Positions 1-14,008 of a stretch of DNA of 23,984 bases are shown piece by piece (within the stretch, counting starts at the first letter, position 1; the number at the start of each line of letters is the position of its first letter). Source of the DNA: a virus; IMG/VR virus record IMGVR_UViG_3300043571_000470, positions 1 to 23,984 of that record. One strand, written 5' to 3'. Made by a program: the position numbers and the translations under genes. The notes beneath the pieces are model-generated. The model saw only the letters and a program-made list of their open reading frames with translations, did not search any database and had not been told where the DNA came from.

Positions 1-137
1 TATTTTTTGGCTTAAAATAAATGTTTTTTGTTTTCTATTGAGTAAATGTCTATAATTCTATTGAGTATATAAAGAATATTTAACCCATCTTTTTATACCA
101 AATTTAGTAATAAATTTATTTTCTTCTACTTAAAATT

Positions 138-464
138 TTAGTTTTTGTCAAGGTAATTTATACAATCTATTTTAATTTTTATTAGGTAAGGTTCTCCTTC
201 GTATAATTTTGATTTATATATATCTTTTCCTACTTTGTAGAAATCTAAAATATTATTTATAACTTCTTGAGGTGGTAAATTTTCAAATTCTAAAAATATT
301 ACTTCGTTGTCTAGTTTTTTGACTCTACTTAAATCTACTTTTGCCCAGTTAAAGTTACTGCAAAAATGAGTAGTAATTATTTCACCAGTTTCAGCTTTAA
401 CAGCCACATATTGTTGACCAATACCGCTATTAGAAATAGCAAAAACATATATTTTTTCTAGCAT
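138..464 (-). CDS. Hypothetical protein, 108 aa
   Basis: I do not recognise a family. The protein is soluble in appearance, with a beta-rich N-terminal half (MLEKIYVFAIS, then alternating hydrophobic residues) and a helical middle around PPQEVINNILDFYK. No signal peptide or membrane segment is seen. It is the last gene of the leftward block and starts only a few bases after the stop of its upstream neighbour, so it is probably co-transcribed with the ERF, HU and wall-hydrolase genes. The ATG is preceded by an A/T-only spacer without a Shine-Dalgarno sequence. Confidence 0.75.
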   Translation of the reverse strand: MLEKIYVFAISNSGIGQQYVAVKAETGEIITTHFCSNFNWAKVDLSRVKKLDNEVIFLEFENLPPQEVINNILDFYKVGKDIYKSKLYEGEPYLIKIKIDCINYLDKN

Positions 465-469
465 AATAA

Positions 470-730
470 TTATTTTAATAAATTTTTGATAATTTTAAAT
501 TCTTCTACTTTGGGTGTTGAGTGATAATGCCCGTCAGGGGTGGAAACTCCGCCAATTATTTTGATGTGTCTTTTTGCAGATGTTAAATTAAAAAATAACT
601 TAGTGCCATATAAAATATCTTCGTAAGTTGATCTTCTTTTATCATTTATGAACTTTTGAATGATTTTATTATCCCAGTCAATCTTCCACAAAAATTTAGC
701 TTTTTTCCATTTTTCATCAAGGTTTTTCAT
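470..730 (-). CDS. Hypothetical basic protein, 86 aa
   Basis: Unrecognised. The protein is lysine-rich, with tryptophans near the N-terminus (KWKKAKFLWKIDW) and a C-terminal part containing GGVSTPDGHYHSTP. The charge would suit nucleic-acid binding, but no defined motif supports that. It lies between a two-helix membrane protein upstream and another unknown gene downstream in the leftward block, with a 46-bp gap from the upstream gene. Function cannot be assigned. Confidence 0.75.
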   Translation of the reverse strand: MKNLDEKWKKAKFLWKIDWDNKIIQKFINDKRRSTYEDILYGTKLFFNLTSAKRHIKIIGGVSTPDGHYHSTPKVEEFKIIKNLLK

Positions 731-776
731 AAAATTATTTTAATAAATTTTCTGTTAAAAAAGACATAAATTTTAC

Positions 777-962
777 TTATTGTTGTTTTATGTCTAGAGA
801 TTCTATCAACATTGCAATTGTATAAGCTACCGTCACATTCATTATAAGCAATCCAGCCATAAAATTATCTTTTGTTGCTATTGTGTAGCCCATCCCAAAT
901 AAGATAGAGCTAGGGAATATTATTAGGAGTATTGTTAAGAAATTTATCAATAAATTTATCAT
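777..962 (-). CDS. Small two-helix membrane protein, 61 aa
   Basis: The protein has two hydrophobic segments, roughly residues 3-25 (LLINFLTILLIIFPSSILFG) and 34-55 (FMAGLLIMNVTVAYTIAMLI), joined by a short polar loop, and a polar tail. Size and topology resemble small phage holins, and a wall hydrolase is encoded about 0.8 kb upstream in the same operon. Holins have no reliable sequence signature, so this is a suggestion only. Its ATG lies just upstream in sequence of an A/T-rich spacer and no ribosome-binding site is seen. Confidence 0.7.
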   Translation of the reverse strand: MINLLINFLTILLIIFPSSILFGMGYTIATKDNFMAGLLIMNVTVAYTIAMLIESLDIKQQ

Positions 963-970
963 ACAAAATT

Positions 971-1405
971 TTACTTATTATTATTTAAAATAGTCATAAT
1001 ATTGTTTTTATACCAGCTAGCTATTAAATTGTCAGCTTTCCAATTTGGGTCGTAACAGCTTAATACAGTTTTTATAGGACTTTCTGGGCTGTAATCTTTG
1101 TATTTTTCAGATAATTCTTTGTATTCTTTTTCGTCAAGATTGTTTGTATCTAACAACCTAAAGAATAGTTTTTTTGTCTTTTTAGCTTCTTGATCAATTT
1201 CTAATATTCTACCAGTATAAGGGACATTGATTTTGTGCGGGTTGGTTTTTCTTATCTCTTCTTGTTTTTTGTAATCTACTACCCAATTTCTTAGTGAGTG
1301 CCTTGATATAGGTAGGTTTTTTGCAAATTGATATTCACTTACTCCACTTTTTAAAAAGTCTTTTGCTGTTTGGTTTCTTAGCTCTAATGGTGTGTGTTTG
1401 GTCAT
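971..1405 (-). CDS. Probable helix-turn-helix DNA-binding protein, 144 aa
   Basis: The N-terminal 45 residues resemble a transposase-like or homeodomain-like helix-turn-helix: a helix near LELRNQTAKDFLKSG, a turn, then EYQFAKNLPISRHSLRNWVVDY as candidate recognition helix. The rest is charged and mostly helical, ending in a tryptophan-containing tail. A longer frame begins at 1447, but the ATG at 1405 sits directly behind the HU stop codon and matches the tight spacing of the operon, so I chose it. There is no transposase catalytic domain; a regulatory or structural DNA-binding role is inferred. A protein of similar design is encoded at 15451-15915. Confidence 0.7.
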   Translation of the reverse strand: MTKHTPLELRNQTAKDFLKSGVSEYQFAKNLPISRHSLRNWVVDYKKQEEIRKTNPHKINVPYTGRILEIDQEAKKTKKLFFRLLDTNNLDEKEYKELSEKYKDYSPESPIKTVLSCYDPNWKADNLIASWYKNNIMTILNNNK

Positions 1406-1406
1406 A

Positions 1407-1751
1407 TTATTTAGTATTTTTAAGTTTATCTTTAAATTGTTTTCCAAGTGTAAAGTGTGCTGATTGTTTGGCTGGGATTGTCATTTTTTTACGAGTTCTG
1501 GGATTAACTCCTTTCCTTGATTTTCTTAAGATTGGAGCAAACTGTCCAAAACCTGTGATGCTGACAGTATTTCCCTCTGCGACTAATTCCATTATTAAAT
1601 CTGTGAATCTTCCACAGACTGCTTCTGATTCTATGTTTGTTATTCCTAGCTCTACAGCTAATAATTGAATAAATTCAGGCTTTGAAATTTTAGACTTGGG
1701 TTGGTTTGTGTTGTTAAAAGCGACTATTGGTAGTTTTTTAAGTTTTGACAT
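1407..1751 (-). CDS. HU/IHF-family DNA-bending protein
   Basis: The 114-residue protein aligns by eye with the bacterial DNABII family: an N-terminal helical part (SKPEFIQLLAVELGITNIESEAVCGRFTDLI), then the family hallmark ITGFGQFAPILRKSRKGVNPRTRKK around residues 65-88, and a C-terminal helix ending FKDKLKNTK. The GFGxF and RxGxNPRT features form the strand-turn and arm that insert into the DNA minor groove. The extra ~20 N-terminal residues precede the usual HU start. A phage HU would bend and compact DNA, assisting replication, recombination or packaging. It sits between the wall hydrolase and a helix-turn-helix gene with gaps of only a few bases. Confidence 0.92.
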   Translation of the reverse strand: MSKLKKLPIVAFNNTNQPKSKISKPEFIQLLAVELGITNIESEAVCGRFTDLIMELVAEGNTVSITGFGQFAPILRKSRKGVNPRTRKKMTIPAKQSAHFTLGKQFKDKLKNTK

Positions 1752-1757
1752 ATATTT

Positions 1758-2453
1758 TTAGATTAAAATTGAAAATTCTCTGCTAAAAGCTGAGTTCATA
1801 AGCCAGCTCATCGCATAGTTGCTATTGTTGTCCCAGTTTGTAATAGAACTAGCATAAAATTTGCCGTTGTTTATTGTTTTACCTTCGGGGCAAAACTGCC
1901 AACCTCCCCTTGATAGGTGGCAAAGTTTGCTTGCCTTTCCTAAATATTGATTAGTCAAGGTTTGGTAAATTGCCTCTATTCCTTCGTTCCAGCTAGTAAA
2001 GGCTTGACAAGTCGGACAGCTGTCAGTATTGCCTACATTTCCTAAGTTATAAGGAGTTGTAAGATTCCGACCAAGAGAACTATCAGCAAAGGCTACAGCT
2101 ACAGCAGAATAAGGATGTCTTTTGTATTTTACCCCCAAATCAAAAAAAGTTTCTGCTTCTTTTTCTGTTAATGGACTATTTTTTTCTTTGAAAAAGTATG
2201 TGATTCTGGTGATGATTTCTTGTTTGTCTATTGTTGTTGATTGTTTGATTATTTCAGTTTGTTTTGGTGGTTCGCTAGCTTGACTTGAGAAGCTAGATTT
2301 TTCATCTACTATTCCGCTTGCAAGGGCTGGAGGGTTGGTCTCTGTTTGGTTTGTATTAGTATTTGGAGTAGCTATAGAATAACCAAAGCCGATTAAAATT
2401 ATTCCAGCTAATAAAATTACTGGTAACGGATATTTATTATTTGTTTTTGACAT
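1758..2453 (-). CDS. Membrane-anchored cell-wall hydrolase (glucosaminidase/lysozyme-like)
   Basis: The 231-residue protein has one N-terminal hydrophobic segment (about residues 9-28, PLPVILLAGIILIGFGYSIA) acting as signal peptide or anchor, then a low-complexity T/N/Q/S linker to about residue 75, then a globular domain. That domain contains AVAVAFADSSLGRNLTTPYN, LGNVGNTDSCPTCQAFTSW, and a late block with SSITNWDNN. This pattern resembles the glucosaminidase/lysozyme-superfamily muramidases (PF01832-like), where an early acidic residue acts in catalysis; the expected Glu is not obvious and an Asp (FADSS) stands in its place. Four cysteines (a CxxC plus two more) may form disulfides outside the cytoplasm. 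Likely role: peptidoglycan cleavage at entry or lysis. Start is preceded by the recurring TTAATTAAACTTTT element. Confidence 0.75.
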   Translation of the reverse strand: MSKTNNKYPLPVILLAGIILIGFGYSIATPNTNTNQTETNPPALASGIVDEKSSFSSQASEPPKQTEIIKQSTTIDKQEIITRITYFFKEKNSPLTEKEAETFFDLGVKYKRHPYSAVAVAFADSSLGRNLTTPYNLGNVGNTDSCPTCQAFTSWNEGIEAIYQTLTNQYLGKASKLCHLSRGGWQFCPEGKTINNGKFYASSITNWDNNSNYAMSWLMNSAFSREFSILI

Positions 2454-2463
2454 AAAAGTTTAA

Positions 2464-2733
2464 TTAATTTTTAGAGTTTTCTGATTTCTGTAAAAAATCT
2501 ATTGATCCAATTATTACAAATTTAAAAAGCAAACTGAAAAATATTATAAAAAAAAGATTTTTAAAAATATCAGATATTAAAATTAGTTTTATGTATTCTG
2601 GGAAATATCTTGACAATATTTTAGTAGTAGCCATACTCAACAAGAACGGAGCATAAAAAAAGTTGAGAGAATTAAGAATTTTTGTTAATTTTTGTGTAGT
2701 TTGAGACATTATATATTTGTTATTTTCTGACAT
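2464..2733 (-). CDS. Small membrane protein with two probable helices, 89 aa
   Basis: Two hydrophobic stretches are visible: one around residues 24-36 (SLNFFYAPFLLSMATT) and a stronger one around residues 58-78 (FKNLFFIIFFSLLFKFVII). Its place directly upstream of the wall hydrolase makes it a holin candidate, which is inference from topology and neighbourhood. An alternative in-frame ATG at 2709 would give MSQTTQ and an 81-residue protein; both starts have A/T-rich leaders, and the upstream one at 2733 carries the recurring ACTTTTTATG context, so I prefer it. Confidence 0.7.
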   Translation of the reverse strand: MSENNKYIMSQTTQKLTKILNSLNFFYAPFLLSMATTKILSRYFPEYIKLILISDIFKNLFFIIFFSLLFKFVIIGSIDFLQKSENSKN

Positions 2734-2744
2734 AAAAAGTTAAT

Positions 2745-2987
2745 TTAATTTTTAGGAATTTCTTTACTTTGCATTCTTACAGGGTCGTAACATTCAGTAC
2801 CTCTAACTTCTGTATAATCTTGACCATAAATAGATTTGCAAATTTCTAATCGTTGATTTGAAATGTTTATTTCTTTATTAAATACTATAATTAGCATTAT
2901 TAAAAGAAAAGTTACTAACGATAAAAGAAAAATAAAAGTTGCTGTATCTTGTGTTTTTTGTATTTTTAAAATGGTTTCTACGGACAT
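2745..2987 (-). CDS. Single-span membrane protein, 80 aa
   Basis: A single strong transmembrane segment spans about residues 17-36 (TFIFLLSLVTFLLIMLIIVF) and is followed by a polar tail of some 40 residues with two cysteines (ICKSIYG, TECYDP). If the tail is outside, the cysteines could pair. Membership in a lysis cassette with the neighbouring membrane protein and wall hydrolase is possible; one-span proteins with a soluble outer tail include spanins, but those belong to diderm hosts and no spanin signature is seen. Function unknown. Confidence 0.7.
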   Translation of the reverse strand: MSVETILKIQKTQDTATFIFLLSLVTFLLIMLIIVFNKEINISNQRLEICKSIYGQDYTEVRGTECYDPVRMQSKEIPKN

Positions 2988-2995
2988 ATATTTTG

Positions 2996-3145
2996 TTATT
3001 TGTTTATTAAAAATTTAAATAAAGTTATTAGATATTTAAATAAATTTGGGTTCATTTCGTCTTCCAATTTTTCTGTTCTTATATAGCTTGTGCCAGAAAA
3101 GCCGTTGTTAATTATTTCATTTTTATAAAGTTTTGTTTTTGGCAT
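2996..3145 (-). CDS. Small hypothetical protein, 49 aa
   Basis: A 50-codon frame (MPKTKLYKNEIINNGFSG at the start) fills the space between two accepted genes exactly, with 8 bp to the next start and 5 bp from the previous stop. The tight fit and the same base composition as its neighbours make it a real gene more likely than not. The sequence has a polar N-terminal half and a hydrophobic/aromatic C-terminal helix (NLFKYLITLFKFLINK). No family recognised. Confidence 0.6.
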   Translation of the reverse strand: MPKTKLYKNEIINNGFSGTSYIRTEKLEDEMNPNLFKYLITLFKFLINK

Positions 3146-3150
3146 AAGGT

Positions 3151-3456
3151 TTATTTTAAAGTTTTAAAATTATTATCAATCACATAAATATTAGATCTAA
3201 AGTTATAAATTAGTTCTTGGATTATTTCGGTAAAATATTCAGCATATCTTTTAGGATTTTCGGTTAAAAAGTAGTTGCTATAGTTTGTGTCTGTGTTATT
3301 TGTAACAGTAATCATAATGTCATCTTTATTTTCTATTCTTTTAATTGTGATTTCATAAATTAAAAAGTTGTTATAAGTGTAATTTTCCATATTAACTGAT
3401 ACAAAATCAGCTACAGAATAAATTATGTTATTTATTTGAAGATGTGTTTTAGTCAT
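3151..3456 (-). CDS. Hypothetical protein, 101 aa
   Basis: Unrecognised soluble protein. The sequence alternates hydrophobic and polar residues (THLQINNIIYSVADFVSVNM, then YEITIKRIENKDDIMITVTN), suggesting a beta-sheet domain, followed by a helix (YAEYFTEIIQELIYNF) and a short C-terminal strand. The overall arrangement resembles the small unknown genes at 22893-23813, but no direct homology can be claimed by eye. It lies inside the leftward operon with an A/T-rich leader. Confidence 0.7.
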   Translation of the reverse strand: MTKTHLQINNIIYSVADFVSVNMENYTYNNFLIYEITIKRIENKDDIMITVTNNTDTNYSNYFLTENPKRYAEYFTEIIQELIYNFRSNIYVIDNNFKTLK

Positions 3457-3464
3457 ATTTTTGT

Positions 3465-3566
3465 TTAAAAGTTTAAGTTTATATAAATTGTAAAAAATTC
3501 TATTATAAAAAAGAGTATTGCTAGCAAAGTTCCGAAAAAAATGATTTGTAGATTTTCTTTAATCAT
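3465..3566 (-). CDS. 33-residue membrane peptide
   Basis: The frame starts MIKENLQIIFFG and continues through one hydrophobic span (TLLAILFFIIEFFTIYI) to a short polar end. Its ATG overlaps the TGA of the upstream gene as ATGA, a typical translational coupling, which is the best support for it being translated. Peptides of this design are common in phage operons, but the function is unknown. It may act at the membrane, for example in lysis or host takeover; this is speculation. Confidence 0.6.
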   Translation of the reverse strand: MIKENLQIIFFGTLLAILFFIIEFFTIYINLNF

Positions 3567-3844
3567 ACTATTAATTCATTAAAAGGCACTCTGATTTTTA
3601 CATAAGGTTTTTTCTTTAGATTATTAGAAATTTTGCTATTCCTTATCTGTTTAGCTTTTTCAAACTGGCTAATTAAATCTTTGGCTTTTTCTGAGTCTAA
3701 AATAAGGCTTATATTCATATCAAAGTCTTCTAAAGTGCCAGTGTATAAATTGCTATCAAGAGTAATCGGCATATACTTGATTAGTTCTTCGCAGTTAATA
3801 ATTGCAATTGTTTCTTTTGATTTTGGTGTTTGTTTTTGGAGCAT
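3563..3844 (-). CDS. Hypothetical protein, 93 aa
   Basis: Unrecognised. It begins with MLQKQTPKSKETIAIINCEE and has a hydrophilic helical middle (DSEKAKDLISQFEKAKQIRNSK) and a basic C-terminal strand (KKKPYVKIRVPFNELIV). No membrane segment. It lies three genes downstream of the ERF annealing gene and is coupled by an ATGA overlap to the following membrane peptide. An auxiliary DNA-metabolism role is possible from position only. Confidence 0.7.
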   Translation of the reverse strand: MLQKQTPKSKETIAIINCEELIKYMPITLDSNLYTGTLEDFDMNISLILDSEKAKDLISQFEKAKQIRNSKISNNLKKKPYVKIRVPFNELIV

Positions 3845-3854
3845 AAAAGTGTGG

Positions 3855-3998
3855 TTATAATTTAAAAGTTATTTCTGTGTTTTTTGGTGTTTTAAGTTTT
3901 TCTAATTTTGCTAGTTGTCTTTTTAGAATTGTTAGCTCGGGATTTTCACCGAATTTTTTTTTGATATTTATTATTAGATATTTTAAGGCTGTGGGCAT
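3855..3998 (-). CDS. Small hypothetical protein, 47 aa
   Basis: The 48-codon frame (MPTALKYLIINIKKKFGE at its start) fits exactly between neighbouring genes, with 3 bp to the upstream stop and 10 bp to the downstream start. The sequence is lysine-rich and predicted helical (ELTILKRQLAKLEKLKTP), compatible with a short coiled coil. No family recognised; the case rests on fit and composition. Confidence 0.6.
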   Translation of the reverse strand: MPTALKYLIINIKKKFGENPELTILKRQLAKLEKLKTPKNTEITFKL

Positions 3999-4001
3999 AG
4001 G

Positions 4002-4358
4002 TTATTTTTTGATTTCTGATATTAAAGTTTTTCTAGTTTGTAATTTTTCAAAATCTTCTAAAACAAAATCTAAATCCTTTAAAGTTTTTTTAGCTTTTTC
4101 ATTGTCAAAGGTTTTTGCTACTGTTGTTTTATAAAAATAAATCCTATTTTCAAATTCTACTTTTTCATTAAATTTTAAAGTTTCTTTGATTGGTTTTTCA
4201 AAGTTATTTATAATCTTGTTTGTTACTAAGCTAATTCTTTTTAAAGTGTCTATAATATCTAAATAGTCTTTATCAGTGAGTTTTTGCTCTTCTGATAGTC
4301 TAAACACGACAGACAAAATATCATCTGCCCGCCGTGTGTTGGTTTCTAATTCAGTCAT
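4002..4358 (-). CDS. Hypothetical helical protein, 118 aa
   Basis: A charged, helix-rich protein with heptad-like spacing (RRADDILSVVFRLSEEQKLTD, DYLDIIDTLKRISLVTNKII, then NEKAKKTLKDLDFVLEDFEKL). It lies just downstream of the ERF gene with a 10-bp gap. Genes in that place often encode recombination accessories such as single-strand-binding or nuclease partners, but nothing in this sequence identifies an OB fold or a nuclease motif. Function unknown; coiled-coil interaction is the only visible property. Confidence 0.7.
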   Translation of the reverse strand: MTELETNTRRADDILSVVFRLSEEQKLTDKDYLDIIDTLKRISLVTNKIINNFEKPIKETLKFNEKVEFENRIYFYKTTVAKTFDNEKAKKTLKDLDFVLEDFEKLQTRKTLISEIKK

Positions 4359-4368
4359 AAAAATAAGA

Positions 4369-5133
4369 TTAAAAAGGAGTTGCTACAAATGTGTCTGGGT
4401 GTTCTGATTCTTCTTCAAAGTATTTGTCGGTTTCGTTAATATCAATTTCGTCTTCTTTTATTTCTGCTGTATTAATTTTGACAAGTTTTGAAAGTTGAAA
4501 ACCTCCGTGTGGTTTCATAGTTGCAGGATCAATAATACTAGGTAAGTTCTTAGCAGTTCCAGAGTATACCCATTTTTTACCGTCTTTGTCGTATTTGTCG
4601 TTGTAAATAAAGCCGTGTTTTTCAGCTTCTTCTTTAGTAATTTGGATGTTTTTAAATCCACTACTTTTTAAAGTTTCGCCTTTTTCTTTACCAAAAGCTA
4701 CGACTAAAATAGCATTTTTATCAGTTGTAGTTTGAGTTTGTGGTTTTTTATATTCTTGTTTTTGTGAGTTTTGGGCAGTATTGCCGTCGTCATCTTCACC
4801 TTCAATAATTAACCCTAAACAAGCAGTCAAAGCATATCTTTTAGCATAAGTCATAGTAGAACCTATTTCTTGTGGTTTGCCTTGAAAAACTGCTGGGTAA
4901 TTAAACTCTTTGGTATTACCATCAACATCAAACAGAACAGTTTTTAAACCTTCGTTTGTTGCTTCTTGTATATATCCAAGCCCTGCATTAGCTAATGGCT
5001 CTTGTATAGCTTTTTGTATGCTATCAAGTGGTGCATACTTGGACTTGTAGAAAGGATTTGTCTCATCCTTTTTAATTGTTGGCATCGACTTTTGAAAATC
5101 AATAATCCTTGAATATATTGTTTTTTCTATCAT
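4369..5133 (-). CDS. erf: ERF-family single-strand annealing protein
   Basis: The first ~125 residues match the ERF superfamily: a helical start (IYSRIIDFQKSMPTIKKDE), then NPFYKSKYAPLDSIQKAI (the NPFxKSKYAxLD signature), a central strand region with GLKTVLFDVDG, and MTYAKRYALTACLGLIIEGE followed by DDDGNTA. These are the hallmark blocks of proteins such as P22 Erf that anneal complementary single strands during phage recombination and genome circularisation. After a Q/T-rich linker, a C-terminal region (about 140-200) with GFKNIQITKEEAEKHGFIY and KWVYSGTAKNL may be a small substrate-binding or partner-binding domain. The acidic tail resembles those that bind accessory proteins. Confidence 0.92.
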   Translation of the reverse strand: MIEKTIYSRIIDFQKSMPTIKKDETNPFYKSKYAPLDSIQKAIQEPLANAGLGYIQEATNEGLKTVLFDVDGNTKEFNYPAVFQGKPQEIGSTMTYAKRYALTACLGLIIEGEDDDGNTAQNSQKQEYKKPQTQTTTDKNAILVVAFGKEKGETLKSSGFKNIQITKEEAEKHGFIYNDKYDKDGKKWVYSGTAKNLPSIIDPATMKPHGGFQLSKLVKINTAEIKEDEIDINETDKYFEEESEHPDTFVATPF

Positions 5134-5151
5134 AAAATATATAATAATTGT

Positions 5152-5376
5152 TTAATTTAATTTAATTGGTTGAGATTGTGCTATTTCTAGCTGTTGTCTT
5201 GTTTCCTTTAATACATCACAAAAAAGAGTATAAGAGAAGGGATAATTTACTTGTTTTGATTGCTCTAACTTGTAAATCAAAGTCAAAATTTCTTTGATAA
5301 TAGACTCTTCTTTTAGTAATTTTGCTACTTCTGGGTTTTTTTTGAGAATATTAGCGATTAATTGGTTTGAGGTCAT
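5152..5376 (-). CDS. Hypothetical helical protein, 74 aa
   Basis: Unrecognised. Mostly helical (SNQLIANILKKNPEVAKLLK, EESIIKEILTLIYKLEQS), with a short aromatic stretch YPFSYTLF and a polar C-terminus. It precedes the ERF gene in the operon and its ATG overlaps the TGA of an upstream 29-residue membrane peptide as ATGA, so the two are probably translationally coupled. No catalytic or binding motif is visible. Confidence 0.7.
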   Translation of the reverse strand: MTSNQLIANILKKNPEVAKLLKEESIIKEILTLIYKLEQSKQVNYPFSYTLFCDVLKETRQQLEIAQSQPIKLN

Positions 5377-5462
5377 AAAAATTTTATTAAAAATAGTATA
5401 AAAATTATTATAAAAGCTAGTATAATCACTAAACTTAATATAAAAGTTAAAAGTTTGAACAT
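5373..5462 (-). CDS. 29-residue membrane peptide
   Basis: Almost the whole peptide is one hydrophobic helix (MFKLLTFILSLVIILAFIII, then a second lipophilic stretch ending KFL). Its stop overlaps the next start as ATGA and it begins 2 bp after the stop of the preceding gene. A peptide so lipophilic could be a small holin-like, antiholin or membrane-regulating peptide; no evidence separates these. It could also be a spurious frame in AT-rich DNA, though the ATGA coupling argues against that. Confidence 0.55.
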   Translation of the reverse strand: MFKLLTFILSLVIILAFIIIFILFLIKFL

Positions 5463-5464
5463 AC

Positions 5465-5611
5465 TTAATTTAAAATTTCGTTAATTTTTGTATTTGTTTG
5501 TTTTAGTTTTGCTAAAAATTGAGATGTTTCCATTTCCGATAAATTAGCTTGAGAAAGTGTAAAAATGACTTGCTCTAATAAACTGTTTAGATTTTGTAAT
5601 TGCTTAGACAT
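5465..5611 (-). CDS. Small coiled-coil-type protein, 48 aa
   Basis: The frame starts MSKQLQNLNSLLEQVIFTLS and ends with LAKLKQTNTKINEILN. Leucine and isoleucine spacing suggests an amphipathic helix or coiled coil. It is the first gene after the structured region at 5640-5950 and so would be the promoter-proximal gene of the leftward operon if the RNA reads through. The leader (TTTTTTTACTATT before the ATG) has no Shine-Dalgarno sequence. Function unknown. Confidence 0.6.
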   Translation of the reverse strand: MSKQLQNLNSLLEQVIFTLSQANLSEMETSQFLAKLKQTNTKINEILN

Positions 5612-5639
5612 AATAGTAAAAAAAGTGTTTTTGAAAATT

Positions 5640-5950
5640 AGCCAAAATGTTGAGTGTAGGAGGGAAGGATGACTTCCGTGCTTGCTTTGATATTTATGTG
5701 CCGTACGAACATCGCTTTGAGTAATTATTAGTTACCAATTAGCTAAAATCCACTCACTTTCTCTACAATTAATTAGATTGTAATAGCTCACAGTCTATAA
5801 ACTCCTACACTCAACATTCCAGCTGTAAAATTCTAATTACTTAAAACCATTTCCAGCATTAAGATTAGAATTAAGTAGTCAATTCAGAAGCAAGTTTTGG
5901 ATTTATTGCCTATGCCAGAAAACTTTTAAAACTTCTGAATTAACTGACTG
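5640..5950 (-). ncRNA. Candidate structured non-coding RNA (or long structured leader)
   Basis: This ~310-nt stretch has no credible gene and begins just downstream of a perfect minus-strand promoter. Read on the minus strand it folds into nested stems seen directly in the bases. (a) 5932-5945 pairs with 5877-5890 over 14 bp with one G-U, enclosing a 7-bp stem (5919-5925 with 5892-5898). (b) 5864-5872 pairs with 5829-5837, continued by 5859-5863 with 5840-5844. (c) 5802-5818 (minus-strand AATGTTGAGTGTAGGAG) pairs perfectly over 17 bp with 5646-5662, enclosing hairpins 5764-5782 and 5663-5677 (GGAAG/CTTCC). GC content is locally higher than nearby. I see no tmRNA, RNase P, 6S or riboswitch signature. 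A T-run follows near 5615-5621, so it may end there or read into the gene at 5611. Confidence 0.6.
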
Positions 5951-5955
5951 AATTA

Positions 5956-5984
5956 ATTATATACAACTTTTTTATAATTGTCAA
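5956..5984 (-). promoter_or_regulatory. Consensus sigma-70 promoter, leftward
   Basis: On the minus strand, TTGACA (5979-5984) is followed by exactly 17 bp and TATAAT (5956-5961): a perfect match to both hexamers. The predicted start is near 5949-5950, immediately before the structured RNA region. It would drive that RNA and, by read-through, the leftward operon to 138. Strength this close to consensus suggests early or constitutive expression. Confidence 0.85.
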
Positions 5985-5997
5985 GAGATAAATATAT

Positions 5998-6237
5998 TTA
6001 TAGTGGTTTTATCCTTATTTTACTTGGTTTTTTAGCTTTTCTATTTTTTAAATTTATTAGTTTTTTTTCACCAAAAAGTCTTTTTATATCAATTATATCT
6101 AAATTTGTTTTAAAACGAACTTGATTTTTTTTAGTAGTTATTTTAAAATTTTTATCTGATTTAAGATATTTTGAAATTGAAATTCTACAGTGATTTGTCA
6201 AATTTGATAATTCTGTGATTGTATATATTTTAGTCAT
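5998..6237 (-). CDS. Small DNA-binding regulator (helix-turn-helix), 79 aa
   Basis: The N-terminus reads KIYTITELSNLTNHCRISISKYL, a helix-turn-helix of the excisionase/AlpA or resolvase-like type, followed by a strand (NFKITTKKNQVRFKT) and a strongly basic tail (KNRKAKKPSKIRIKPL). It lies in the control region between the leftward and rightward transcription units, directly upstream of the consensus leftward promoter, as phage repressors or Cro-like regulators often do. Regulation of the flanking promoters is inferred from position. No clear promoter for it was found, although a TTGACA (6269-6274, minus) lies upstream with a poor -10. Confidence 0.7.
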   Translation of the reverse strand: MTKIYTITELSNLTNHCRISISKYLKSDKNFKITTKKNQVRFKTNLDIIDIKRLFGEKKLINLKNRKAKKPSKIRIKPL

Positions 6238-6286
6238 AATAAACAGTAGTCAACTATATATATTTTATTGTCAAGGGTTTTTTTGG

Positions 6287-6315
6287 TTGACAAAATTTCA
6301 AAAAGTTTTTAATAT
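6287..6315 (+). promoter_or_regulatory. Sigma-70-type promoter of the replication operon
   Basis: TTGACA at 6287-6292, a 17-bp spacer and TAATAT at 6310-6315 (consensus -35, four of six matches at -10). Start is predicted near 6322, leaving a leader of about 155 nt before the initiator gene. A divergent TTGACA on the other strand (6269-6274) makes the arrangement back-to-back, with the two -35 hexamers forming an inverted repeat that a regulator could occupy. Confidence 0.7.
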
Positions 6316-6321
6316 TTAAAT

Positions 6322-6477
6322 GTAGATTAACTAAGGGTTTGTCTTTATACCCAGTTATCTAATCTTGCATTTGCAAGCTCTTAGCTAATCTATACATAAC
6401 TAAAATAAAGACCTAGTTTATATATAGAGAAGACCCAAAAGACAGGGTTTTTTGTCTGTTATATAAAAAAATGGAAT
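6322..6477 (+). promoter_or_regulatory. Structured 5' leader of the replication operon
   Basis: Several complementary segments are visible: TAGATTAACTAAG (6323-6335) with CTTAGCTAATCTA (6380-6392), 12 of 13 paired; hairpin CTTGCATTTGCAAG (6364-6377); and GTCTTTAT (6341-6348) with ATAAAGAC (6405-6412), continued inward by AGTTAT (6353-6358) with ATAACT (6396-6401). The last helix crosses the first, so they form either a pseudoknot or two exclusive folds. Further down, AGACA/TGTCT and TTATATA/TATATAA pairs flank ACCC...GGGTTTTTT, a weak terminator-like element just before the start codon. This suggests RNA-level control. A seven-codon frame (MEYVKFK, 6471-6494) overlaps the initiator start. Confidence 0.5.
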
Positions 6478-7365
6478 ATGTTAAATTTAAATGAAAAATT
6501 ATTAGATTTACAATCTGAAATTGGCACAGAGGCTTTTTGTGTCTTATTACAAATTGCTAGATACTCAAACAACAGTTTTAGTGCAAGACCCGGAGTTTTT
6601 AAACTTTCTAAATTGACTGGGTTAAGCCAAAGAAAAGTAACTATAGCTACTAACCAACTCCAAAAATTAGAGTTAATTAGCAAAAAACAACTTTTTGTAA
6701 CTGAAAAGCTAAAAGAAAAATACCCTAAATTAAAAGAAAAAAGATTAGGTGCTTTTTTCACTAACGAATATACAATAACTACTGATTTTATTAGTAAGTT
6801 TGTAAATGTTAGAGGTTCTACAGGTTATGATTTTTCAGAAGAAGAAACCAACGATAGTCAATTTGACGACATCGTAACTGACGACATCGTAACTGACGAC
6901 ATCGTCAAATCAACCAACAAAGTATTGAAAGATTTTAGAAGTATTGAAAGTTTAGAAGTATTGAAAGAAGAGAAGGAGGCAACCGCCGATTTGAAAAATC
7001 AAAAACCACAAAATGAAATAAAGATATTAACTCAATCCTTAGATAATTATTGTGTGAAAATAGGACTGAACCCAAACCAAGAACTAGCTTGGAAAATCAA
7101 ACGAACAATTAATAACAAACAAAATCCACAAGGATTTTTAGATTATTTAAACAATTACCGATCAAACCAAGATGATTTTGACGAAAAAAAACTCAAATTT
7201 ATATTTTATCAAGATTATTGGTATAATGATTTTTTGGCTTGGGAAGTAGAAAATAGAGAATACTTGCAAACAATCAAGGACTACATACCACAAACGGAGG
7301 AAGACTATGTCAACAATCTTAAAGAATTATTAAATAACCCATTTTTAAACAAATACACAACCTAA
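6478..7365 (+). CDS. Phage replication initiator, winged-helix type
   Basis: The 295-residue protein has an N-terminal winged-helix domain, about residues 1-110: EIGTEAFCVLLQIARYSNNS, a recognition segment LSKLTGLSQRKVTIATNQLQ, and a wing leading to FTNEYTITT. This design is shared by DnaD-like and replisome-organiser proteins that bind origin DNA. A repetitive acidic linker (DDIVTDDIVTDDIV, about 131-144) follows, then an S/E/K-rich hinge and a helical C-terminal domain (about 175-295) that may contact the helicase. The helicase gene starts 3 bp after the stop, which supports the initiator/loader role. Two sets of direct repeats lie within the coding sequence (6865-6905, 6921-6967). The ATG at 6478 is preferred; the ATG at 6471 is in another frame. 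Confidence 0.72.
   Translation: MLNLNEKLLDLQSEIGTEAFCVLLQIARYSNNSFSARPGVFKLSKLTGLSQRKVTIATNQLQKLELISKKQLFVTEKLKEKYPKLKEKRLGAFFTNEYTITTDFISKFVNVRGSTGYDFSEEETNDSQFDDIVTDDIVTDDIVKSTNKVLKDFRSIESLEVLKEEKEATADLKNQKPQNEIKILTQSLDNYCVKIGLNPNQELAWKIKRTINNKQNPQGFLDYLNNYRSNQDDFDEKKLKFIFYQDYWYNDFLAWEVENREYLQTIKDYIPQTEEDYVNNLKELLNNPFLNKYTT
6865..6905 (+). repeat. 15-bp tandem repeats, candidate iterons
   Basis: Two perfect copies of GACGACATCGTAACT (6865-6879, 6880-6894) are followed by a partial third (GACGACATCGT, 6895-6905). They encode the DDIVT repeats of the initiator linker. Because 15 is a multiple of three, protein-level repetition alone could explain them, but synonymous positions are also identical, which points to recent duplication or DNA-level function. 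Replication origins lying inside the initiator gene are known, for example in phage lambda. Confidence 0.8.
6921..6967 (+). repeat. Three spaced copies of AGTATTGAAAG, candidate iterons
   Basis: The 11-mer AGTATTGAAAG occurs at 6921-6931, 6940-6950 and 6957-6967. Spacings are 19 and 17 bp, so the middle copy is read in a different frame (SIES) from the outer two (VLK). Conservation of the DNA word while the encoded residues differ points to selection on DNA, as expected for initiator binding sites. They lie 16 bp downstream of the 15-bp tandem repeats. Confidence 0.75.
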
Positions 7366-10910: not shown

Positions 10911-11324
10911 ATGGAAAATTACAATCTAATCCGAGAAAAACCTGATTTAGAAAAACTTTTTAGAATTCATTCAGTATCTAAAACAGAAAAAGCATATTTA
11001 GACGGATTGGAGTATAAACTTGGTCAACAAATAATAAGACAGGTTAGATTTGGTAGGTGGCTTTTAGATGGACTACTAACAACAAATAATATTATTATAG
11101 AATTTGACGGACAACAGAATCATCAAAGTCCAGAAAAGCAAGCCAAAGACGAAAAAAGAGATGATGAGTTTTTAAAAATAGGTTTTTCAATTTACCGATT
11201 ACAATGGTTTGAATTTGAAAGAGACTATAGACTTTATCAATTAGCACTCAAAAAAGTAGTGGAAACATCTGCAAATCATATCAAAACCTTAATCAAATTG
11301 CAAAATCTAAAAAATAGTTTATGA
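10911..11324 (+). CDS. DUF559/Vsr-like PD-(D/E)XK endonuclease
   Basis: The 137-residue protein matches the DUF559/very-short-patch-repair-like fold. RQVRFGRWLLDGLLTTNNII contains the first catalytic Asp, IIIEFDGQQNHQSPEKQAKD supplies the E-x-DG-x-x-H core, and EKRDDEFLKIGFSIYRLQWFE matches the conserved RDxxLxxxGFxIYRL block. Such proteins act as nickases or endonucleases in repair, restriction or mobile DNA. In a phage it could process branched DNA, degrade host DNA or act with the methyltransferases downstream as a restriction partner; context does not decide. The C-terminus QNLKNSL is identical to that of the next gene, and the stop overlaps its ATG as ATGA. Confidence 0.8.
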   Translation: MENYNLIREKPDLEKLFRIHSVSKTEKAYLDGLEYKLGQQIIRQVRFGRWLLDGLLTTNNIIIEFDGQQNHQSPEKQAKDEKRDDEFLKIGFSIYRLQWFEFERDYRLYQLALKKVVETSANHIKTLIKLQNLKNSL

Positions 11325-11482
11325 TTGAAAAACTTAAAAAACAAATAGAATTTTCAAGGGCTGTAGGTTTTGCTATAGGTGTTTTGAATGGAATATTGTT
11401 TGTTGATAGATTGACAGAAAGTCAAATAAAAGCTATAAAAGAGGCTATTGAAGGATTACAAAATCTTAAAAATAGTTTATGA
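11321..11482 (+). CDS. Methyltransferase-coupled small protein, copy 1 (53 aa)
   Basis: A 53-residue protein (MIEKLKKQIEFSRAVGFAIG at its start) with a hydrophobic amphipathic core (GFAIGVLNGILFVD), then TESQIKAIKEAIEGLQNLKN as a second helix. A near-identical copy lies at 12935-13093, and both overlap a methyltransferase start by ATGA. Conservation of the pair in two cassettes argues it is translated and works with the enzyme, perhaps as subunit, specificity or expression factor. No family is recognised. A sigma-70-type promoter is embedded in its sequence (11411-11439). Confidence 0.75.
   Translation: MIEKLKKQIEFSRAVGFAIGVLNGILFVDRLTESQIKAIKEAIEGLQNLKNSL
11411..11439 (+). promoter_or_regulatory. 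Promoter embedded in small partner gene, copy 1
   Basis: TTGACA (11411-11416), a 17-bp spacer and TATAAA (11434-11439) give a near-consensus promoter inside the 53-codon gene. The start would be near 11446, about 33 nt before the methyltransferase ATG, giving it a private promoter. The same element is present in the second cassette, but since the two copies are duplicates this is not independent evidence. Confidence 0.6.
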
Positions 11483-12906
11483 TTGATATAAAACAAGGCG
11501 ATTGCCTAGAATTGATGAAAAACATTCCTGACGAGAGTGTGGATTTGATATTTTGCGACCCGCCTTATGCTTTGGGAAGTGAAGTTATTATAAAACCAGA
11601 TGGGAAGCCAGATTATAAAAAAGCCGTGGACTTTATGAATAAATGGGATCAGCCAGACGGCACTTTTTGGGAAGAGTGGTTTTATGAGGCTAAAAGAGTT
11701 TTAAAACATGGTGGACACTGTTTGATGTTTGGAATGGACAGACAACTTTGGTTTAATTGCTATTATGCTAATTTATCAGGCTTTACCCAAAAACAGTCTT
11801 TGTACTGGTATTTTATAAGTAATTTTCCAAAGGCGAGTGATTTGAGTAAGAATTTAGATAAGTATTTTGGAGCGGAGAGGGAGGTTGTGGATATTGTTAG
11901 TGCGAATATAGCAAGACCAAATTCAAAAAATTATGATGTTTCAAAATATGAAGCAAACAGAGATGGCGAAACTTTCGGCAGTATTGGTAAAGCTTCAGCT
12001 TGTATTAAAGAAATCACAGCCCCCAACACTCCCCTAGCCAAGAAATACGAGGGAATAAAATATTCTGTTGCACCTTTAAAACAAACAAATGAAACTATAA
12101 TGGTATTTCAAAAACCATACAAAACAGGCTCTTGTTTGCACGATGTTTTGGCAATGGAGGGTGGAGATGATACGATTACTTGTGGTGGGGTAGATATTGA
12201 GGGGAATCGGGTTGGAGTTAGTGGTGGAGGTAACAATGGAAGAAATGTTGATAGTAATATTTATGGCAAGCTAGGGAAAACAGAAAAGTCAGATGAAGTT
12301 ATTGGCAGATTCCCAGCCCAAACATACATTGATTCAGGAGCGAGTGAAATCATTGATTTGCAAAGTGGGGTATTGAAAAGTGGAGGTAAAAAAGCTAACC
12401 AAGAACAATACAACAATAAGAATAGAGATGTAACAGGATTTGTTAATACACTAGGAGCAACGAAAAACGAATATACAGCCAACTCAGGCGGAGCTTCCAG
12501 AATACTCCACCGTTGCGACTTTGAAGCTGGAGACTATGATTTGTATCATTATTGTCCTAAAGTGTCCAAAAGTGAAAGGAATGAAGGACTGGAGGGGTTT
12601 GAGGAAAAGCAAAAACGAACACTGGGGAATGGAATAGGTGGGGTTTCACAGGAAAATACAGCAAAAGTATTTAACGACCACCCAACAGTCAAACCAAAAG
12701 CCCTTTTATCCAAAATACTAAAACTATTTAAAACACCAAACAATCAAGTTTTACTTGACCCTTTTATGGGTTCTGGAAGTATGGGAATTTCAGCGGTAGA
12801 AACTGGTTTTGATTACATCGGTTACGAACTAGACCCTGAATATTTTCAAATTGCCAAAACTAGAATTGAAAATGCAGAAAAAAAACATTATGAAAAATTA
12901 TTTTAA
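11479..12906 (+). CDS. DNA methyltransferase 1 (beta-class, N6-adenine or N4-cytosine)
   Basis: The 475-residue enzyme has the beta-class order: motif IV near the N-terminus (LIFCDPPYALGS, about residues 23-34) and the AdoMet-binding motif I near the C-terminus (LLDPFMGSGSMGISAVETG, then YIGYELDPEYFQIAKTRI, about 430-465). The DPPY form suits N6-adenine methylation. A long central region (about 60-400) with glycine-rich stretches (GVSGGGNNGRNV) is probably the target-recognition domain and is unlike that of the neighbouring enzyme. HPTVKPKALLSKIL is the usual segment preceding motif I. Protection of phage DNA from restriction, or regulation, is the likely role. The first ~25 residues and the last ~30 are nearly the same as in the second enzyme. 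Confidence 0.9.
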   Translation: MIDIKQGDCLELMKNIPDESVDLIFCDPPYALGSEVIIKPDGKPDYKKAVDFMNKWDQPDGTFWEEWFYEAKRVLKHGGHCLMFGMDRQLWFNCYYANLSGFTQKQSLYWYFISNFPKASDLSKNLDKYFGAEREVVDIVSANIARPNSKNYDVSKYEANRDGETFGSIGKASACIKEITAPNTPLAKKYEGIKYSVAPLKQTNETIMVFQKPYKTGSCLHDVLAMEGGDDTITCGGVDIEGNRVGVSGGGNNGRNVDSNIYGKLGKTEKSDEVIGRFPAQTYIDSGASEIIDLQSGVLKSGGKKANQEQYNNKNRDVTGFVNTLGATKNEYTANSGGASRILHRCDFEAGDYDLYHYCPKVSKSERNEGLEGFEEKQKRTLGNGIGGVSQENTAKVFNDHPTVKPKALLSKILKLFKTPNNQVLLDPFMGSGSMGISAVETGFDYIGYELDPEYFQIAKTRIENAEKKHYEKLF

Positions 12907-12934
12907 TTCAATTACAAAATTTAAAAAATAATAT

Positions 12935-13093
12935 ATGATTGAAAATCTTAAAAAACAAATAGAAATTTCTGAAGCTGTAGGTTTTGCTATAGGTGTTTTG
13001 AATGGAATATTGTTTGTTGATGGATTGACAGAAAGTCAAATAAAAGCTATAAAAGAGGCTATTGAAAAATTAGAAAAATTAAAAAGTTTATGA
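12935..13093 (+). CDS. Methyltransferase-coupled small protein, copy 2 (52 aa)
   Basis: A near-duplicate of the protein at 11321-11482: the central stretch from AVGFAIG to IKEAIE differs only at one residue (VDGLTE against VDRLTE), and the ends diverge more (KLEKLKSL). Its TGA overlaps the second methyltransferase ATG as ATGA. Retention of an intact frame in both copies suggests it is functional. It begins 28 bp after the first methyltransferase stop. Confidence 0.75.
   Translation: MIENLKKQIEISEAVGFAIGVLNGILFVDGLTESQIKAIKEAIEKLEKLKSL
13025..13053 (+). promoter_or_regulatory. Promoter embedded in small partner gene, copy 2
   Basis: TTGACA (13025-13030), a 17-bp spacer identical to that of copy 1, and TATAAA (13048-13053). 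Transcription would start about 30 nt before the second methyltransferase ATG. The full hexamers are kept although flanking codons vary. Confidence 0.58.
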
Positions 13094-13959
13094 TTGATAT
13101 AAAACAAGGCGATTGCCTAGAATTGATGAAAAATATACCTGACGGGAGTGTGGATTGTATAATTAGTGATGTGCCTTATGGTATTGGTATTGATACTTGG
13201 GATAAGCCGATTGATATTTCTTTGTTTATGGATGAATGTAAAAGATTATTAAAAAAAGAAGGTTTTTTGTGTTGGTTTGGGCAAATGCCAACAATGATTG
13301 ACTGGATAAACGAAAGCCAGAAAAGATTTAAATATGCCGAACATATTTCTTGGATAAAAAGATTTTGCACACCATCAAGAAGACTTAAAAGAGGACACGA
13401 AAGCATTTTTATTTATAGAATAGACAAAACAAATTTTTATCAAAATAAAGGACGGTATGAAGATATTGTTGTGCCAAAATTAGATGTAGCAGGGATAAGT
13501 TTAGATGGTATTAAAAGGCATATTTCAAATTTACATTCTTTAATCAATACGGGACAACCAAATTCCAGAGTAAAAAACAAAGGGAAGTCAAACAAAATTT
13601 ATAGTTATCTTGCTGAATTAGGACAAAAAAAAAGCAAACACGATATTTATGCAAGTAGTGGAGATGCTAATTTTACTAATGTTTGGAGCTTTATGCCAGC
13701 AAATTTAGCAAAAAGAAATAAAACAGAACAAGGACACCCCACACAAAAACCTATTAAACTTATTGAAAGGCTTGTAGAAATGTTAAGTTTAGAAAAGATG
13801 ACAATTTTAGACCCCTTCATGGGCAGTGGCACGACTGGAGTTGCCTGTGCTAATTTAGACAGAAATTTTATCGGATATGAATTAGACCCTGAATATTTTG
13901 AGATTGCCAAAGCTAGAATAGAAAATGCAGAAAATAAATTTAAAGAAATGTTAATGTAA
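13090..13959 (+). CDS. DNA methyltransferase 2 (beta-class, probable N6-adenine)
   Basis: The 289-residue protein shares its start (MIDIKQGDCLELMKNIPDGS) with methyltransferase 1, but motif IV reads IISDVPYGIG, a DVPY variant of DPPY seen in some phage and bacterial adenine methyltransferases. The C-terminal block contains HPTQKPIKLIERLVEML, then motif I ILDPFMGSGTTGVACANLD and GYELDPEYFEIAKARIEN. The middle (WFGQMPTMIDWINESQ, ISWIKRFCTPSRRLKRGHES) differs from the first enzyme and presumably reads a different target. Length is typical of small solitary methyltransferases. No cognate restriction gene is obvious, although a DUF559-type nuclease lies upstream. Confidence 0.9.
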   Translation: MIDIKQGDCLELMKNIPDGSVDCIISDVPYGIGIDTWDKPIDISLFMDECKRLLKKEGFLCWFGQMPTMIDWINESQKRFKYAEHISWIKRFCTPSRRLKRGHESIFIYRIDKTNFYQNKGRYEDIVVPKLDVAGISLDGIKRHISNLHSLINTGQPNSRVKNKGKSNKIYSYLAELGQKKSKHDIYASSGDANFTNVWSFMPANLAKRNKTEQGHPTQKPIKLIERLVEMLSLEKMTILDPFMGSGTTGVACANLDRNFIGYELDPEYFEIAKARIENAENKFKEMLM

Positions 13960-13963
13960 AAAT

Positions 13964-14008
13964 ATGCAAAAAGATTGGAAAGGAAATACAGTAATTAGGT
14001 GGATTTAG
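13964..14008 (+). pseudogene. Possible 5' stub of a lost methylase gene
   Basis: Directly after the second methyltransferase comes a 14-codon frame starting MQKDWKGNTV. From memory, an N-terminal (K)DWKGN followed by a longer body is typical of another phage adenine-methylase family (proteins continuing with LGASNH and a DYYAT motif). Here the frame stops after IRWI, so it may be the remnant of a deleted third methylase. Fourteen codons are very little evidence, and a chance match is possible. Confidence 0.35.

What the first reader, a model, noticed from the sequence alone, without database searches (positions are those of the whole stretch)
5640..5950. A ~310-nt region with multiple perfect stems behind a perfect promoter: candidate new structured RNA
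Seen directly: no gene, a TTGACA-17-TATAAT promoter, then stems of 14, 9+5, 7 and 17 bp, with small hairpins inside the last. Long exact complementarities (AATGTTGAGTGTAGGAG with its reverse complement about 140 nt apart) are unlikely by chance and enclose further hairpins, so they behave like a multi-branched RNA, not a simple operator. The region is GC-richer than its surroundings. I see no resemblance to tmRNA, RNase P, 6S, or the much longer phage-associated ROOL/GOLLD RNAs. Being the strongest promoter's first product, it may be an abundant phage RNA or a leader controlling the whole leftward operon.
Basis: partly seen in the sequence, partly recalled or inferred. Interest (0 to 1): 0.82.

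Follow-up and report, generated by a model that had tools for sequence, protein, structure and literature searches.

The report
Structured leader RNA of orphan phage
A roughly 310-nt non-coding stretch of an uncharacterised AT-rich phage really does fold far better than chance directly behind the genome's only perfect promoter, and is most likely the structured 5' leader of the phage's leftward early gene operon; with no relatives found, whether it is a new RNA class cannot be settled.

Summary
On the minus strand, a 12/12 TTGACA-17-TATAAT promoter (5984-5956; the only one in the window) is followed, from its predicted +1 (A5949), by three compact domains: P1 (14-bp stem), P2 (9+5 bp), and P3, a multibranch domain closed by a 17-bp perfect helix that extends to about 23 bp with three G·U pairs. 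MFE is -91.7 kcal/mol, z -5.6. A perfect 17-bp repeat occurred in 9 of 800 whole-window shuffles and 0 of 5000 region shuffles. No Rfam family matches.

The best reading is a structured, non-coding 5' leader (about 338 nt) of the leftward early operon (48-aa ORF, 74-aa ORF, Erf recombinase and further genes). No minus-strand terminator and no comparable promoter separates it from these genes. Three other TTGACA promoters sit 11-25 nt from their genes, and the rightward early leader also starts with a long stem at +1. Stabilisation, RNase III processing or put-like antitermination are plausible; none is shown.

No homologue was found: the phage is an orphan (best terminase identity about 30%), so covariation could not be tested. 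Thermodynamics do not prefer the minus strand. A free-standing ncRNA is not excluded. Iterons inside the O-like gene make an origin role less likely.

The parts
5956..5984 (-). consensus sigma-70-type promoter TTGACA-17-TATAAT; predicted +1 at A5949
   Evidence: 12/12 match, only one in the window; +1 inferred as 7th base after the -10 box
5877..5949 (-). P1: first hairpin, 14-bp stem with one G·U, in register with the predicted +1
   Evidence: mean pairing probability of arms 0.97 and 1.0
5829..5872 (-). P2: hairpin of 9+5 bp with a GAAA loop closed by weak G·U pairs
   Evidence: pairing probability of arms 0.73 and 0.66
5802..5824 (-). P3 closing helix, 5' arm (17 perfect pairs plus G·U-containing extension to about 23 bp)
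   Evidence: pairing probability 0.99
5664..5801 (-). interior of P3: small hairpins in a multibranch loop, individually weakly determined
   Evidence: mean pairing probability 0.5
5641..5663 (-). P3 closing helix, 3' arm
5465..5611 (-). first ORF downstream of the leader, 48 aa
5152..5376 (-). 74-aa ORF of the leftward operon, no PHROG match
4369..5133 (-). Erf-like ssDNA annealing protein of the leftward operon
   Evidence: PHROG phrog_2324 E 1.6e-34
6322..6477 (+). leader of the rightward early operon: about 21-bp stem from the predicted +1, then a terminator-like hairpin (6428-6453) before the O-like gene
   Evidence: z -2.77
6864..6905 (+). 2.8 perfect copies of a 15-bp repeat inside the O-like initiator gene, probable iterons of the replication origin
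   Evidence: O-like assignment is weak

Best explanation
The region is the structured, non-coding 5' leader (about 338 nt from +1 at A5949 to the ATG at 5611) of the phage's leftward early operon. Transcription starts at the consensus promoter, the nascent RNA folds into P1, P2 and P3, and RNA polymerase continues into the 48-aa, 74-aa and erf genes. The likely jobs of the folds are to protect the 5' end of an abundant early mRNA, to offer the long P3 closing helix (about 23 bp) as a processing site for an RNase III-like enzyme, and possibly to act on RNA polymerase as antitermination leaders do. Shown: promoter match, stems, significance of the fold, absence of a substantial ORF and of a recognisable minus-strand terminator. 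Inferred: transcription start, read-through, early timing, and every function.
For: Only 12/12 promoter of the window, and the first stem begins at or within 5 nt of the predicted +1. Fold z -5.6; the 17-bp helix is not expected by chance. No terminator-like site on the minus strand in 1-6300 and no better promoter between the RNA and erf. Gene layout resembles the early region of HK022/P22: O-like then DnaB-like rightward, with Erf leftward (Erf in the P22 PL operon is from memory). The divergent rightward leader also begins with a long stem at its +1, whereas three other TTGACA promoters placed just before genes give leaders of only 11-25 nt. The three domains run almost without gaps from +1 to 30 nt before the first ORF. 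RNase III cuts RNAs of lambda, T7 and T3, including the lambda N leader (PMC5371410).
Against: No transcript data. No homologues, so no covariation. Thermodynamic excess is equal on both strands. No gene examined in the window has a clear Shine-Dalgarno sequence, so control by masking such a site is unlikely. U-rich stretches after 5640 could let transcription stop without a recognised terminator; the terminator scan is a simple consensus scan.
Confidence: 0.5

Rival explanations
1. A free-standing, abundant phage non-coding RNA of about 310 nt, ended or processed near 5640, acting in trans or as a structural RNA; the perfect helix P3 could be the processing stalk from which the inner RNA is cut.
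For: Compact fold bounded by +1 and about 5640, consensus promoter, no substantial ORF.
Against: No intrinsic terminator at 5640; erf genes would then lack a good promoter; no long complementarity to other phage transcripts, longest exact match 12-13 nt in AT-rich sequence.
Confidence: 0.25
2. A DNA-level or replication element: an origin or origin transcript acting as primer, or a palindromic protein-binding site.
For: Lies between divergent early operons near the replication genes; the folds are equally strong on both strands.
Against: Probable iterons lie inside the O-like gene at 6864-6905, as in lambda ori (lambda arrangement from memory); arms 139 nt apart are not an ordinary operator; stems are in register with +1.
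Confidence: 0.12
3. A small inserted element such as a MITE, 173 bp with 17-bp terminal inverted repeats (P3), unrelated to P1 and P2.
For: Perfect 17-bp inverted repeats 173 bp apart end to end.
Against: No target-site duplication visible at the flanks; single copy; the arm has only one other exact match in the viral collection, a lone arm within apparent coding sequence; on the minus strand the helix extends past the repeat ends by G·U pairs.
Confidence: 0.05

Closest known systems
HK022 putL/putR antitermination RNAs
   Same: Structured RNA at the start of early transcripts of a phage with a similar replication gene order; putL is just downstream of PL and consists of two stem-loops, first base pair at A3 (PMC9378689)
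   Different: put is about 70 nt; here P1+P2 take about 120 nt and a large P3 follows; no significant sequence or profile similarity to the HK022 early region fetched; the left and right leaders share only a 9-nt match
Lambda/T7 early RNAs with RNase III sites
   Same: Long helix in a phage leader upstream of the first genes (PMC5371410)
   Different: P3 encloses about 138 nt with branches instead of a simple hairpin; processing not shown and host unknown
ROOL and GOLLD RNAs
   Same: Phage-encoded structured RNAs
   Different: ROOL example 659 nt and GOLLD often over 800 nt, often near tRNA islands (PMC12286853); here about 310 nt, no tRNA, no Rfam match
Lactococcal phage c2 origin transcript (from memory)
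   Same: Strong early promoter driving an untranslated structured RNA
   Different: Not tested; the probable origin of this phage is elsewhere

Membership tests
Any Rfam 15 family (tmRNA, RNase P, 6S, ROOL, GOLLD, introns, riboswitches) | covariance-model match at gathering score | tested here: not met
   no match in the window; only two eukaryotic chance-level matches at E up to 10
HK022 put RNA | position at start of an early phage operon | tested here: met
   P1 starts at the predicted +1 of the leftward promoter; early timing inferred from gene content
HK022 put RNA | about 70 nt, two stem-loops | tested here: not met
   two hairpins span about 120 nt and are followed by a third large domain
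HK022 put RNA | shared sequence with putL/putR | tested here: inconclusive
   no significant blastn match of the left leader and no significant single-sequence profile match in HK022 27500-34500; put coordinates are not annotated there, so that the fetched stretch holds both put sites is presumed
HK022 put RNA | binds RNA polymerase beta' zinc-binding domain and suppresses termination | not testable with these tools
   needs transcription assay
ROOL/GOLLD | length well above 600 nt, profile match | tested here: not met
RNase III-processed phage leader | long, nearly perfect double-stranded helix in an early leader | tested here: met
   17 perfect pairs extending to about 23 with G·U pairs; transcription inferred
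RNase III-processed phage leader | cleavage | not testable with these tools
   needs in vitro cleavage or RNA-seq
MITE | terminal inverted repeats with target-site duplication, several copies | tested here: not met
   inverted repeats present, but no duplication seen in flanks and single copy
Conserved structured RNA in general | compensatory base changes in homologues | tested here: inconclusive
   no homologue by DNA, protein neighbours or single-sequence covariance models

The most novel reading that the evidence does not exclude
P1-P2-P3 is a new class of phage regulatory RNA, for example a protein-free antiterminator or RNase III-excised RNA that works like HK022 put but without sequence or architectural kinship, in a phage whose genes lack Shine-Dalgarno sites and whose host is unknown.
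Probability: 0.2. Interest if true: 0.65.

Novelty: new member of a known kind. Interest (0 to 1): 0.4.

Why it matters
Structured RNAs at the head of phage early operons can reprogram host RNA polymerase or protect early mRNA. This one lies in a phage with no close relative in the collections searched, so if confirmed it would extend such leaders to a new phage lineage. As it stands it is a well-supported structure with an undetermined function.

Tried and rejected
Homologue searches led nowhere: the exact 17-nt arm in viral contigs gave one chance match; DNA similarity to phages and plasmids gave only promoter-like or AT-rich matches, including Lactococcus 936-type phages at the promoter alone; relatives through Erf, DnaB-like, terminase, portal, O-like and the 382-aa protein gave only distant proteins or nothing; a terminase alignment found phages at about 30% identity with records of 26-30 kb, but none shares the RNA. 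Single-sequence covariance models matched only the window itself; the plus-strand self-match (E 1.8e-07) is the inverted-repeat symmetry. G·U strand preference was tested and is not significant. Trans targets were looked for and nothing stood out. Retron: no reverse transcriptase among the window proteins scanned; many of the remaining ORFs were not scanned.

Full report
What the window is. The window is a whole IMG/VR virus record of 23,984 bases, classed linear and so possibly a fragment. It encodes a tailed phage: terminase large subunit, portal, an Erf-like annealing protein, an O-like initiator (weak match), a DnaB-like helicase, a Holliday junction resolvase and two DNA methylase-like proteins (the first resembles phage methylases; the second was not scanned, but it starts like the first). 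GC is 28.7%. Stop codon use fits the standard code. Of 38 starts examined none has a clear Shine-Dalgarno sequence.

Observation. On the minus strand the only 12/12 promoter, TTGACA-17-TATAAT, lies at 5984-5956. The seventh base after the -10 box is A5949. From there the RNA folds into P1 (5949-5877), P2 (5872-5829) and P3 (5824-5641), leaving about 30 nt before the first ORF. P1 is a 14-bp stem with one G·U; in the fold of the longer transcript three further pairs start exactly at A5949. P3 is closed by 17 perfect pairs extended by three G·U and three Watson-Crick pairs to about 23 bp. P1 and P3 closing arms have pairing probabilities near 1; P2 about 0.7; the interior of P3 about 0.5, so its small hairpins are uncertain.

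Chance. The minus strand folds at -91.7 kcal/mol against -63.5 in shuffles, z -5.6. A perfect inverted repeat this long appears in 9 of 800 shuffles of the whole window and in none of 5000 shuffles of the region. The excess stability is the same on both strands once composition is allowed for, so orientation rests on the promoter and its register with P1, not on energy. The region is GC-richer than its flanks but ordinary for the genome.

Surroundings. Leftward downstream lie a 48-aa ORF, a 74-aa ORF and erf. No minus-strand terminator-like site was found in 1-6300, and the next promoter-like site downstream is weak and overlaps the start of the 48-aa ORF. Rightward, a TTGACA-17-TAATAT promoter at 6287 leads to a 156-nt leader that also begins with a long stem at its predicted +1 and ends with a terminator-like hairpin before the O-like gene. 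Three other promoters with a full TTGACA box just before genes have leaders of 11-25 nt. Nearly three perfect copies of a 15-bp repeat inside the O-like gene suggest a lambda-like origin there. HK022 has O followed by a DnaB-like gene in the same order.

Interpretation. The simplest account is a structured 5' leader of the leftward early operon. Known precedents are putL of HK022, which sits just downstream of PL, folds as two stem-loops and suppresses pausing and termination without proteins (PMC9378689), and the RNase III-cut RNAs of lambda, T7 and T3 (PMC5371410). The present RNA works plausibly like either, but it is not a put RNA by length and architecture, and no similarity to the HK022 early region was seen. 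It is not ROOL or GOLLD.

Limits. No homologous region was found in the phage, plasmid, viral-contig or genome-contig collections through DNA, neighbouring proteins or covariance models. Protein-based scans rely on exact short peptides and can miss relatives of moderate identity. Covariation, the decisive test, therefore could not be made, and transcription is inferred.

Verdict. Real feature; leader reading favoured at about 0.5, free ncRNA 0.25, DNA or replication element 0.12, inserted element 0.05. Interest 0.4.

Noticed in passing
6322-6477 +: Leader of the O-like gene has an about 21-bp stem from +1 and a terminator-like hairpin at 6428-6453 with possible competing pairing (GGGTTTGTCTT against AAGACCC), resembling an attenuator of replication gene expression.
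   Followed up: partly
6864-6905: 2.8 perfect copies of TGACGACATCGTAAC in the O-like gene, probable origin iterons; the 6601-6900 minus strand also folds strongly.
   Followed up: partly
whole window: 38 gene starts without clear Shine-Dalgarno sequences despite TTGACA/TATAAT-type promoters; host lineage unknown.
   Followed up: partly
10911-14000: DUF559/REase-like protein (10911-11324) near two DNA methylase-like genes whose first residues are nearly identical (MIDIKQGDCLELMKNIPD), each preceded by a similar 52-53-aa ORF: a local duplication.
   Followed up: no
5998-6237 -: 79-aa gene between the two early promoters with no family match; its sequence looks like a small helix-turn-helix regulator.
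   Followed up: no
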